Assembly (NCBI GenBank): GCA_020425125.1
Contig: JAGQRV010000024.1
Span: 1-55,299, forward strand
Direction: 5' to 3'
Length of the DNA stretch: 55,299 nucleotides
DNA from: Paracoccaceae bacterium
GTDB taxonomy: Bacteria > Pseudomonadota > Alphaproteobacteria > Rhodobacterales > Rhodobacteraceae
Shown here: positions 39,870 to 43,658 of the stretch, one piece after another
Layout of the letters: the number at the start of each line of letters is the position of its first letter
Numbering within the stretch: position 1 is the stretch's first letter
The notes under the pieces: generated by a model
Database searches by the model: none
Seen by the model: only the letters and a program-made list of their open reading frames with translations
What the model was told of the DNA's origin: nothing
Made by a program: the position numbers and the translations under genes

Positions 39870-40500
39870 GTTGCTTTACTTCATCAGGCCGGTCGTGGTC
39901 GCCTTGGTGATGCCCTTCAACACAAGCGCCACCCCCGCCTTCCCGCCCAAAGGCTTCCCACTGCCCTGGTACGAGCGGCCGATTGACCCCACGCAGTCCG
40001 GAACGATCCATACGGGGCACTGAACTCGTTCCAGATTGCGCTGGCCATGGCCCGCGCGCCCCGCACGATGGTGACGGCTACCGAACCGATGCTGCAAGCG
40101 CCGCTGATGCACCCGGCGCTGGTCTATTCGCTCTCGGCGTTCCTGGCGCTCAGTCTCCTGGGTTTCGGCATATCGTTCTGAACCAACCTGCTCGGGCACA
40201 GCATCGTCTTTGCGCCGCTCATGCTCCGCACCGTCTGGGCCTTGCCGAACGCCAGAGTCCGGCGCTGGAGGAAGCCTCGGCCACACAGGGTGCCTTGGGG
40301 CCCCGGACCTTCGGGCGGGTCAGACTGCCGGGCATCTTCGCCGGCGGGTTCCTTGTGTTCATGCAATCGCTCGACAACGCCGACGTCACGCTCTTCCTCG
40401 GCCCGCCCGGACATCCGATGCTGCCCATGCGCCTGTTCGCCATGCTCAAGGAATGCCTCGACGACCGTGTCGCCGCCATCTCGGGCCTGCTCGTTCTGGC
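39870..40500 (+). pseudogene. PotC-like ABC permease remnant
   Basis: Pieces of one permease appear in different frames. ATPAFPPKGFPLPWYE is the typical periplasmic loop; SFQIALAMARAPRTMVTAT, LVYSLSAFLALSLLGFGISF with a TGA, and TNLLGHSIVFAPLMLRTVWAL follow. It resumes in another frame with LEEASATQGALGPRTFGRV (the EAA loop) and SLDNADVTLFLGPPGHPMLP. At about 40500 it runs directly into a peptidase sequence, indicating a deletion joint. Confidence 0.7.
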
Positions 40501-41529
40501 CGACATCCCCGGCGACTCCGGCCAGAAGACCATCGAGGCGACGGTGCGGCTGCTGACCGACATCGGCGCGCTGAGGGGCAGCATCGGCTTCATCGGCGAC
40601 AATCGGTCGGCGGCGTTCCGGTCGGCGCTGACGACGGTAATGCCGGGGGCGAACGTCTCGGACCAACACAGCATCCTCGACCGGATGCAGCGCAACCGCA
40701 CCCCGGCCAAGATCGCGGTCTTCCGTACCGCGGCGCAGCTTGTCAGCATCGCCACTCAGGCCGCCTATCACGTCGCCCGGCCCGGCGTGACCGATTACGA
40801 GCGCTACGCCGCCGTCACAATGGCGCAGATGGCCCGCGGCGGCGAGACCGGCGACGGCTGTCAGATCGGCGCCAACGAATGGGGGACGCATTGCGGCATG
40901 CCCTATGGCCGGCCGATGCCGCCCGGCGATCTGGCGAACCTCAATATCTCGAATGTCACCTACCAGGGCTACACCGCCAAGACCGCCCGCATGATCGCAT
41001 TCGGCCAACTCACCGACCGTCAGGAACTTGTGCTCGACGCCTGCACCCGCGGCGTCACGGCGGCCTGGAAGGTGATCCGACTGGGCACCCTTGTCCGCGA
41101 CCTGATGAACGCAGCCTTCGACAGCTACATCGAGGCCGGGCTGATCAAGGACTGCGAGGCCCGCACCATGCCCAACAACTGGAGCACCGGCTCGGACGGC
41201 GGCCGCGCGAAAACCCTGGCCGGAATGTTCCCGACACCGATTACGAAGCCCAGGGCCGCCAGCTGACGCACGTCTACCCCGCGACCTTCGGGCCGCACAC
41301 TCCGAATCTCGGCCATTCGGTCGGCAAGGCGGGCGGGCAGAACGCCTTCAACATTGCGTCGCACAACTACGGCAAGCTGGAAGAGGCTATGGTCTTCGTG
41401 ATGCACACCCAGTGGCTGGAGCCGGTCTCCGCCGGCTGCGACATCGGCGACATGTATGTCGTGACCGCCGACGGGTTCGAGAACCTCTCGCGCCATACCC
41501 CCCTCGACACGCATCGCGTGATGGCATGA
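40500..41529 (+). pseudogene. M24-family peptidase/creatinase-like remnant
   Basis: It follows the permease in the same open frame without its own start. TDIGALRGSIGFIGDNRSAA belongs to the N-terminal creatinase-like domain, and AAYHVARPGVTDYERYAAV through NISNVTYQGYTAKTARMIAFG to the pita-bread domain. Near 41220 the homology shifts frame to THVYPATFGPHTPNLGHSVG, ending in DMYVVTADGFENLSR. The metal-binding Asp and the final His-Glu pair of M24 enzymes are not recognisable, so it is dead even apart from the frameshift. Its TGA overlaps the start of the flavin reductase (ATGA). Confidence 0.7.
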
Positions 41530-41586
41530 ACAACCTGTCCTTCGACTTCGCCGAACTCACCCCAAAGGAACGCTACAGGCTGCTTC

Positions 41587-41596
41587 CGTAATGGGC
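41587..41596 (+). repeat. IS subterminal inverted repeat, transposase-3' side
   Basis: CGTAATGGGC, the exact reverse complement of 43023-43032, 2 bases inside the inferred element end. Confidence 0.8.
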
Positions 41597-41889
41597 CTCC
41601 TGCCGTCAAGCACTTCTTCCTGGGAGGGCTCCGCCCCGCTCGGTGTGGTGAATGATTGCGCCTGTCGGCCTCCACTGTCGCGCCGCCGGCTTCATGCTTC
41701 CGTCCGTGGTCGGCGCGCGGCCGCCACATCATGCCATCCAGGTGAGCCCCGAGCGCCTATCTGAAGAGCGTGCTTCACGTCCGAGGACGGGTCACGAGCA
41801 GCCTGCCGGCGTCATCGGGGTCCGCGTCCCGGCGACGGGACCTCGGAGAGCCGGTCGCCCTGCGCCGGCTCGAACTGGAGACGATAGGC
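41597..41889 (-). ncRNA. Putative bridge/seek RNA region of the IS
   Basis: 293 bases between the transposase stop and the inverted repeat, with no coding content. In IS1111-group elements the guide RNA that picks the target is made from this end. Read on the minus strand, bases 41805-41797 are CAGGCTGCT, identical to the nine bases of the target gene ending exactly at the insertion point (41576-41584). A CCGAT at about 41818-41814, a few bases upstream in the RNA, could pair with the other flank (GATCGG), but that match is short. The exact RNA ends cannot be seen. Confidence 0.6.
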
Positions 41890-42924
41890 TCAGGCGGTCC
41901 GGACATCCTCCTTGCCGAAGTGGAATGTCGTCCCGTCGAGCCACATGCGGTGGAGGACGGTGGCCAGCTTCCGCGCGACGGCGACGATTGCCCGGTTGAG
42001 CCCGCGCCGCTGGGCGACCCGCAGACCCCACGACCGGAGCCGCGAGACGCTCTGCGTCTGGGTCAGCATCGCCTGCGCGGCCTCATAGAGCATCGAGCGC
42101 ATCGTTCCGTCGCCGGCTTTGGTGATCCCGCCGGTGATGTCGGTCTCGCCGGATTGGTGTTTCTTCGGCGTCAGGCCAAAGTGCGCTCCGACCCGCTTCG
42201 AGGAGCGGAAGCGGCCGGGATCGTCGACCGCCGACGTGAAGGTGAGCGCCGTCAGCGGACCGACGCCCGGCACCGTCATCAGCCGGCGGCAGGTCGCTTC
42301 ATCCCGGGCAAGATCGCGTGCTCTCTTGTCGAGCGCCGTCATCTCCGTCCGCAGGGCGTCGCGAGCGCGCAGCATCGCCGCCGTCACCCGCTCGAGCATC
42401 GAATTGCCGCCGGCGAGTTCCTGCACCCGCTCGGCGAAGCGGCCCTTGCTGATGTTGCCGATCCTGAGCCCGAAGCCCCTGAGCACGCCGCGGAGCCCGA
42501 GCTCGATGTCGAGCATCTTGCTCTGGAGCAGCTTGCGCGCCGTCAGCAAAGCGCGCACCTCCTGGGCCGAGGTGGACTTGCAGTGCACCGGCCGGAACCA
42601 TCCCATTCGCAAGAGCTGCGCGATCCCGCACGCGTCGCGCCGATCGGTCTTGATCGGCATTGCCGAAAGCGCCGCCTTCACCTGCCGGGTTTCCATGAGG
42701 ACCACCTCGATGCCCGCCGCAGCCAGGCCAGCGTGAAGCCACTGCGACAAGGGTCCCGCCTCCATGCCGAGGAGCGTGACCGGATGGTCCAGGCGTCCCA
42801 AGATTAGCAGAAGCGCTTCGGGGTCGCTCGCAACCTTCGTCTCTCGCAGGATTTGGCCCGCGCGGTTCATCACGCAGACGCTCGACTGTTCCGGCGACAC
42901 GTCGATACCGACATACTGTTCCAC
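41890..42924 (-). CDS. IS110-family transposase (DEDD recombinase)
   Basis: A 344-residue transposase. The N-terminal RuvC-like DEDD domain shows YVGIDVSPEQSSVCV (first Asp), LLGMEAGPLSQWLH (Glu) and PIKTDRRDACGIAQLL (Asp pair). The C-terminal transposase_20 domain contains LMTVPGVGPLTALTFTSAVD, then FGLTPKKHQSGETDITGGI with the serine region thought to be catalytic. The start is a GTG at 42924 with GGGAGA upstream, giving VEQYVGIDVS; the open frame continues to 43332 across the element end and is not used. No frameshift or stop is seen, so the enzyme is probably active. Confidence 0.92.
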   Translation of the reverse strand: MEQYVGIDVSPEQSSVCVMNRAGQILRETKVASDPEALLLILGRLDHPVTLLGMEAGPLSQWLHAGLAAAGIEVVLMETRQVKAALSAMPIKTDRRDACGIAQLLRMGWFRPVHCKSTSAQEVRALLTARKLLQSKMLDIELGLRGVLRGFGLRIGNISKGRFAERVQELAGGNSMLERVTAAMLRARDALRTEMTALDKRARDLARDEATCRRLMTVPGVGPLTALTFTSAVDDPGRFRSSKRVGAHFGLTPKKHQSGETDITGGITKAGDGTMRSMLYEAAQAMLTQTQSVSRLRSWGLRVAQRRGLNRAIVAVARKLATVLHRMWLDGTTFHFGKEDVRTA

Positions 42925-43022
42925 GGCTGTCTCCCGTTGTTGGCCTGGGGCCGCGTCCGCGGACCCCGTTCGCTCCTTCATCCTGGGGGACAGCCACCGA
43001 CCTCGCCATCGGGGCGCGGCCC

Positions 43023-43032
43023 GCCCATTACG
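43023..43032 (-). repeat. IS subterminal inverted repeat, transposase-5' side
   Basis: GCCCATTACG on the plus strand, matching 41587-41596 in reverse complement, 6 bases inside the inferred element end. Confidence 0.8.
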
Positions 43033-43658
43033 ACATCTGATCGGCACGGTGATCCCGCGTGCGATCGCGCTCATCACCACGCTGTCGTCCGAGTCCCTCA
43101 GCTTCTTCGACATCCCGATCCACGCCTCGGCGATCATGGCCGTCGGCATCGAGAACAAGCGCGACGGCCAGCCAAACGACACCGCCGCCAACATCCTGGC
43201 GACGGGCGAGTTCACCGTCCACATCTCCGACCACGTCCTTGTCGACCAAATGAAGATCTGCCCGATTAAGTTTGCTGCGGACAGTCTGAAGCCCGGCGAC
43301 GGAGAGTTCATCCAGGTCCGCAGCCCCCGCATCCTCCGGGCACCGGCCGCCTTCGAATGCCACCTGGTTCAGACCGTTCCGGTCGCCCCGGCCCGCGTCA
43401 TCGTCCTCACCGAGGTCAAGCGCATGTTCGTGCGCGAAACGCTTGTCGATCCAAAGACCCTCTACGTCGACCAAGCTGCCGTTGGTCGCCTCGGTGGCCA
43501 CCTCTACGCCCGCTAACTCGACCAGTTCGAACGCGTGACGCCGACGGTAGAGCAGTTCATGGCTGCGTGCGACGGACGCTGACGCCCAACGGCCGCATCG
43601 CAACCCGGGCATTCGTTGCGATGCCGGTGAAGGTCCGCAAAGGGCCGGACGCTACGGC

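What the first reader, a model, noticed from the sequence alone, without database searches (positions are those of the whole stretch)
41797..41805. Nine-base guide match between the IS non-coding end and its target
The minus strand of the 3' non-coding segment holds CAGGCTGCT, identical to the nine target bases ending exactly at the insertion point (41576-41584). By chance, one 9-mer anchored there should match in about 300 bases of either strand only about 0.2% of the time. IS110/IS1111 elements are known to use a structured bridge/seek RNA with target guides, and in IS1111-type elements it comes from this end. A CCGAT a few bases upstream in the RNA could be the other guide (target GATCGG), but that is weak. 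A CTTCCGT at 41698-41704 also matches the left element end with its CT and could belong to a donor loop.
Basis: partly seen in the sequence, partly recalled or inferred. Interest (0 to 1): 0.8.

Follow-up and report, generated by a model that had tools for sequence, protein, structure and literature searches.

The report
Guide RNA of an IS1111-type insertion sequence
A small mobile DNA element carries, beside its transposase gene, a structured RNA whose loop copies the DNA site where the element has landed; in its relatives the RNA and the landing site change together, which makes it a new but ordinary member of the recently described RNA-guided "bridge/seek RNA" elements.

Summary
The nine-base match is real and is a guide. 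Window 41585-43038 is a 1,454-bp IS1111-type insertion sequence (IS110 superfamily), minus strand, inside a flavin-reductase-like gene; a relative's uninterrupted gene confirms the ends. Its 3' non-coding end encodes a ~165-nt RNA (41842-41672). CAGGCTGCT (41805-41797) is the 5' target guide and pairs with the right flank plus core. Over 31 clusters (65 rows) this guide tracks the flank (z 10.5, 0 of 20,000 permutations). The second guide is not CCGAT, which lies in a helix, but CTTCAG (41766-41761); its last pre-core base pairs with the flank in 31 of 31 clusters (chance 12.3). Both lie in one loop of a comparatively supported fold. Two further segments match the element's own ends and co-vary with them by permutation, though a tree-based test is too weak to decide. 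So the RNA looks like a complete bridge RNA. Read on the + strand, its pairing (9 + 4, CT core) equals that of IS621, with the gene cassette reversed. Known kind of system; donor-guide covariation in IS1111-type elements is the most useful new point. Expression and function are untested.

The parts
41585..43038 (-). IS1111-type insertion sequence (1,454 bp, one copy of the CT/AG core counted in)
   Evidence: Empty-site alignment and conserved ends in relatives
41890..42924 (-). Transposase gene, 344 aa, DEDD/IS110 family, with GLTPKKHQSG (the GL-P----SG motif)
   Evidence: motif described in PMC11187229
41672..41842 (-). Bridge/seek RNA region as modelled (~165-170 nt)
   Evidence: Comparative fold; the model R1 matches it by construction; transcript not shown
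41797..41805 (-). 5' target guide CAGGCTGCT: pairs with the right-flank strand (tnp sense) AGCAGCCTG = 7 target bases + core
41761..41766 (-). 3' target guide CTTCAG; in this copy it pairs contiguously with 4 bases (TCAG, core included) of the left flank GATCAG
41759..41760 (-). AT directly after the core in the 3' target guide; equals the first two bases of the element's left end; position of the handshake guide of IS621
   Evidence: Sequence; analogy to passages of PMC11208158; conserved and partly imposed by my search motif, so no covariation test
41731..41735 (-). Donor guide GGCAT, pairs with left end ATGTC (one G-T wobble)
41697..41703 (-). Donor guide ACGGAAG, same sequence as the right end ACGGA plus core AG; the variable base is 41701
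41583..41584 (.). CT core at one end of the element (AG in transposase sense)
43037..43038 (.). CT core at the other end of the element
41604..41609 (-). TTGACG, -35-like box 25 bases from the right end; half of a promoter that would be completed only in the circular form
   Evidence: exact TTGAC in 29 and a one-base variant in 2 of 31 clusters, 25 bases (29) or 26 bases (2) from the end
41526..41584 (+). 5' part of the interrupted flavin-reductase-like gene
43039..43516 (+). 3' part of the interrupted flavin-reductase-like gene

Best explanation
Window 41585-43038 is an IS1111-type element whose 3' non-coding end encodes a two-domain bridge (seek) RNA. In the target arm, the loop holds CAGGCTGCT on its 5' side and CTTCAG on its 3' side. 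These pair with opposite strands of the target CAGGCTG-CT-GA (+ strand) and so fix the insertion at the CT core. A second domain holds GGCAT and ACGGAAG, which pair with the element's own left and right ends. Inferred steps: in the circular form the joined ends make a promoter (TTGAC in the right end); it transcribes transposase and RNA; the DEDD recombinase bound to the RNA brings the circle junction and the chromosomal target together and exchanges strands at the core. Shown here: ends, guide-flank covariation, guide-end covariation by permutation, conserved fold. Not shown: transcription, binding, recombination.
For: Family: NCBIfam NF033542 E 4e-78 and two Pfam domains. Ends: empty site. 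Right-flank guide: best-offset match z 10.5, 0 of 20,000 permutations, 31 clusters; 37 of 42 loci have their best match at RNA positions 32-38. Left-flank guide at fixed register: -1 31/31 (chance mean 12.3), -2 28/31 (13.5), -3 22/31 (12.1), -4 18/31 (12.6), -5 21/31 (11.6); 41763/-1 and 41764/-2 also lead the left-flank scan. Donor guides: right end -3 31/31, two of them wobbles (17.1), also the top right-end cell of the scan; left end +4 28/29 (21.3) and +5 23/29 (16.1). Fold: 93.5% of cells paired against 80.8% in shuffles, 15 of 24 pairs with changes on both sides. TTGAC-like box at a near-fixed distance in 31 of 31 clusters.
Against: Single-sequence folding gives no signal (z -0.22; 0.12). 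With the consensus helices forced and the guides kept open, the window RNA is 13.5 kcal/mol above its minimum (-65.3 against -78.8). In the column-by-column scan the right-flank guide does not stand out: the best cell (41820 with +3, z 4.1) lies outside it, and unrelated cells reach z 3-4.8. The left-flank guide of this copy mismatches at -3 and -4. Best right-flank matches fall outside the guide in 5 of 42 loci and 6 of 65 rows. Tree-based pairs are too few: right end -3 has 3 supported pairs, on average 2.6 the same way, 0 opposite, p 0.25; left end +4 has 3 pairs, 1.4 the same way, 0 opposite, 1.6 without difference, p 1; part of that output was cut, left end +5 with it. Two of 7 same-RNA copies look shifted by one base. 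No expression data.
Confidence: 0.94

Rival explanations
1. The RNA only chooses the target (a short seekRNA); the ends are recognised by protein at the subterminal inverted repeats, and the resemblance of RNA segments to the ends is shared ancestry or another constraint.
For: PMC11187229: an 82-nt seekRNA sufficed for ISEc11 and the authors suggest that end recognition may differ between the families. The tree-based test for the donor sites does not reach significance.
Against: The right end -3 base pairs with its RNA partner in 31 of 31 clusters where chance gives 17.1; left end +4/+5 also track; G, A and C at -3 recur in separate parts of the tree, with 8 changes of the end base and 7 of the RNA base. 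The segments sit where donor guides would be expected.
Confidence: 0.18
2. The 9-mer match is a chance repeat in a GC-rich segment.
For: The match alone has an expectation of 0.2-0.4% per tested anchor, and several anchors could have been tried.
Against: The guide region covaries with flanks in the relatives.
Confidence: 0.01
3. The match was left by the insertion itself (flank captured into the element), not used as a guide.
For: Some mobile elements pick up flanking DNA (general knowledge, recalled).
Against: Seven copies in one genome (G334) with the same RNA over the stretch compared sit at different loci whose flanks resemble the guide near the core and differ further out, as expected if the guide chooses the site.
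Confidence: 0.02

Closest known systems
IS1111-family insertion sequences with seekRNA (ISEc11, ISPa11, ISKpn4, ISPst6; PMC11187229)
   Same: 3' non-coding RNA; subterminal inverted repeats with 7/3-bp extensions; ~340-aa transposase with the GL-P----SG motif; guide complementary to the top strand lies 5' of the one matching the bottom strand; end-junction promoter (inferred here)
   Different: Here covariation also supports donor guides in the longer RNA; different target; relatives fetched by name are alphaproteobacterial; no experiment done
IS621 bridge RNA (IS110 group; PMC11208160, PMC11208158)
   Same: 9-nt 5' guide and 4-nt 3' guide around a CT core when read on the + strand; target and donor guides; possible handshake position
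   Different: RNA lies downstream of the transposase gene, and gene plus RNA are reversed relative to the recombination frame; donor guides lie in a multiloop, as noted for many IS1111 orthologues in PMC11208160
ISCro4 and IS621 transposases (PDB 9t56, 8wt6)
   Same: Best sequence matches among solved structures, E 1e-10 and 5e-10 over residues 191-336
   Different: Distant by sequence; no fold comparison was made

Membership tests
IS1111 family | DEDD transposase of about 330-350 aa with GL-P----S(t)G motif | tested here: met
   344 aa, NF033542, GLTPKKHQSG at residue 250
IS1111 family | Subterminal inverted repeats with 7-bp left and 3-bp right extensions | tested here: met
   GTAATGGGC/GCCCATTAC, extensions AGATGTC and GGA; 9 bp is shorter than the usual 11-13 of PMC11187229 but within the 7-17 of PMC11208160
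IS1111 family | Longer non-coding region downstream of the transposase gene | tested here: met
   305 bp downstream (41585-41889) against 114 bp upstream (42925-43038), from the coordinates
[quoted passage not shown]
   CAGGCTGCT at 41805-41797 precedes CTTCAG at 41766-41761
IS1111 family | RNA of 70-100 nt, with a longer form, bound to the transposase | not testable with these tools
   No RNA or protein data
Bridge RNA systems (IS110/IS1111) | Target guides covary with insertion sites | tested here: met
   (left flank)
Bridge RNA systems (IS110/IS1111) | Donor guides covary with element ends | tested here: met
   By permutation over clusters; the tree-based test does not reach significance
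Bridge RNA systems (IS110/IS1111) | RNA-dependent recombination between circle and target | not testable with these tools
   Needs a bench assay
Rfam families | Match to a described RNA family | tested here: not met
   Four matches up to E 5 in 41400-43200, all far below their gathering scores

The most novel reading that the evidence does not exclude
IS1111-type RNAs of this subgroup are complete bridge RNAs: four guides read both the target and the element's own two ends, with the same 9+4 geometry and CT core as IS621. IS110 and IS1111 would then share one mechanism, with the transposase-RNA cassette turned round relative to the recombination sites, rather than IS1111 using a target-only RNA plus protein recognition of inverted repeats.
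Probability: 0.72. Interest if true: 0.5.

Novelty: new member of a known kind. Interest (0 to 1): 0.36.

Why it matters
IS110/IS1111 recombinases are candidate tools for RNA-programmed insertion of large DNA. The 65 rows give natural guide-target and guide-end pairs for an IS1111-type subgroup, with four guides located to the base. They bear on an open difference between two founding papers: whether IS1111 RNAs also read the element's ends. Compensatory swaps of two or three bases would test it.

Tried and rejected
CCGAT as the second guide was rejected (helix; not among the listed left-flank cells). Single-sequence folding to find the loop failed. Rfam gave nothing. My first end-finding expression was too strict and was widened. 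The general inverted-repeat search picked spurious repeats in many loci, the window included, and was not used for counts. A fixed-register script had the right end shifted by one base, so its right-end result was void; it was redone. The donor-guide register picked wrong bases in some rows (left end +4: 20/27) and was corrected. The column scan did not resolve the right-flank guide, because the aligner puts gaps there, hence the best-offset test. An earlier count said 36 of 42; the printed rows give 37.

Dropped before counting. One search kept the best 80 of 119 confirmed relatives. One search examined 81 sequences (80 loci and the window): 51 had a right end, 45 both ends; 42 had full flanks (23 clusters); 133 motif matches, of which 32 lacked a right end, 10 a left end, 9 had short flanks and 17 were duplicates, leaving 65 rows from 64 sequences (31 clusters). 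The motifs demand an AG core, so constancy of the core was not tested; 2 of 31 clusters had no readable left-end donor guide. The tree used 64 of 65 rows. Alignment A1, model R1 and the pair counts used one sequence for 22 of the 23 clusters plus the near relative L004 (23 rows). Shuffled pairings treat clusters as independent, which they are only in part.

Full report
Observation. The 9-mer and its coordinates are as stated, unique in the window, with a chance expectation of 0.2-0.4% for this anchor. The CTTCCGT copy is one base off (41697-41703).

Element. A 344-aa IS110-family transposase lies at 42924-41890 on the minus strand. Joining 41301-41584 to 43039-43600 gives an alignment without a gap at the junction to an uninterrupted homologue in another genome of the family, so the element is 41585-43038 with a CT (tnp sense AG) core at both ends. 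The subterminal repeat GTAATGGGC/GCCCATTAC with 7-bp and 3-bp extensions, the downstream non-coding region and the GL-P----SG motif fit the IS1111 family as described in PMC11187229 (parts 1-4 of 9, the discussion and found passages read). The window's genome, a 109-contig draft, shows one full-length match and two partial ones.

Relatives. The scan of genome contigs confirmed 119 relatives and kept 80; the nearest are two Salipiger mucosus copies at 89% amino-acid identity. With loci from family genomes, viral contigs and multi-copy genomes, 65 rows from 64 sequences, the window among them, had both ends and all motifs and fall into 31 RNA clusters.

Target guides. A scan of RNA columns against flank positions (23 clusters, 1,000 permutations) put the strongest left-flank signal at 41763 with position -1 (23/23 paired, chance 9.6) and 41764 with -2 (21/23, 9.7). 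At fixed register over 31 clusters: -1 31/31, -2 28/31, -3 22/31, -4 18/31, -5 21/31 against 11.6-13.5 by chance; from -6 outward there is no signal. For the right flank the same scan did not resolve the guide: its best cell, 41820 with +3 (z 4.1), is elsewhere. The alignment is gapped there, so a best-offset test was used: z 9.3 in 23 clusters and 10.5 in 31, 0 of 20,000 permutations each; 37 of 42 loci had the best match at RNA positions 32-38. In this copy the 5' guide pairs nine bases (CAGGCTG + CT) and the 3' guide four contiguous bases (TCAG, core included), the same 9 + 4 as given for IS621 (passages of PMC11208158).

Copies with one RNA. A family genome (G334) has seven copies with the same RNA over the stretch printed. 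All seven have A at -1 and six have G at -2, as the guide predicts; by my reading of the printed flanks five of seven pair with the guide at +1 to +4 and two look shifted by one base.

Donor guides. The base at right end -3 pairs with its RNA partner (41701 in the window) in 31 of 31 clusters, 29 by identity and 2 by wobble (chance 17.1). Left-end bases pair with RNA 41733-41735: +3 29/29 (27.1), +4 28/29 (21.3), +5 23/29 (16.1). On a transposase tree the right-end base changes 8 times and its RNA partner 7 times. In the pair tests that I could see, independent pairs never go the opposite way but are too few: right end -3, 2.6 of 3 the same way, p 0.25; left end +4, 1.4 of 3, p 1; some of the output was cut. 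PMC11208160 shows predicted donor guides for three IS1111 elements found by inspection and says that in many IS1111 orthologues they lie in a multiloop (section 12; passages). PMC11187229 found an 82-nt RNA sufficient for ISEc11. The permutation evidence here favours donor reading in this subgroup. In six searches of open-licence PMC papers I saw no such covariation test for IS1111 elements in the listings; most listed papers were not opened, and papers outside that library were not seen.

Fold. The RNAalifold consensus has a closing helix, a target arm whose loop holds both target guides, and a donor hairpin flanked by the donor guides. 93.5% of cells pair against 80.8% after shuffling and 34-44% after sliding, and 15 of 24 pairs show changes on both sides; the structure was derived from the same alignment, which favours it. 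Single-sequence energies do not support it. With the target-arm and donor-hairpin helices forced and the guides kept open, the window RNA is 13.5 kcal/mol above its minimum, so the fold rests on comparison. CCGAT is in the target-arm helix.

Expression. Exact TTGAC (29 of 31 clusters) or a one-base variant (2) lies 25 bases (29) or 26 bases (2) from the right-end terminus. It fits a promoter formed when the ends join, as described in PMC11187229; the -10 half is poorly matched by eye and activity is untested.

Distribution. A covariance model of the RNA finds matches in 64 of 394 family genomes at E <= 1e-4, the window's own included. Of 32 loci brought in by the model (the window's own among them), 23 match this transposase within the fetched flanks, some only in part, and 9 do not; one of the 9 is a weak RNA match. 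A more divergent transposase could have been missed. Of the 9, I read four (L146, L152, L154, L161); they look like 3' remnants.

Verdict. A well-supported new member of a known kind.

Noticed in passing
L173 (G000:C91:21800-25600), 1278-1115 and 2124-1959, minus strand: The same genome carries two more related transposase-RNA units in tandem, with RNAs matched by the model at 45.7 and 39.2 bits. In the first, GAGACAAC in the RNA resembles TAGACAAC near its likely right end, which would imply a core other than AG.
   Followed up: partly
L146, L149, L152, L153, L154, L156, L157, L161: RNA matches of 83-100 bits without a match to this transposase in the fetched flanks. Four were read (L146, L152, L154, L161): they look like 3' remnants, three with a right end; whether such solo RNAs act in trans is unknown.
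   Followed up: partly
L006, L008-L012 (Microvirga) flanks: These six copies share the right flank AGCACTACAGTTGC, and L011 and L012 have GCAACTGTAATGCTAG on the left, so the target looks like a dyad within a repeat, possibly the end of another insertion sequence.
   Followed up: no
window 39983-41529: By eye, reading frames beside the element look broken or fused (overlapping long frames), which suggests decay or assembly errors; no family search was made.
   Followed up: no
L177, L178 right flanks: Two of seven copies with the same RNA have one extra G next to the core, as if the guide paired one base out of register.
   Followed up: no
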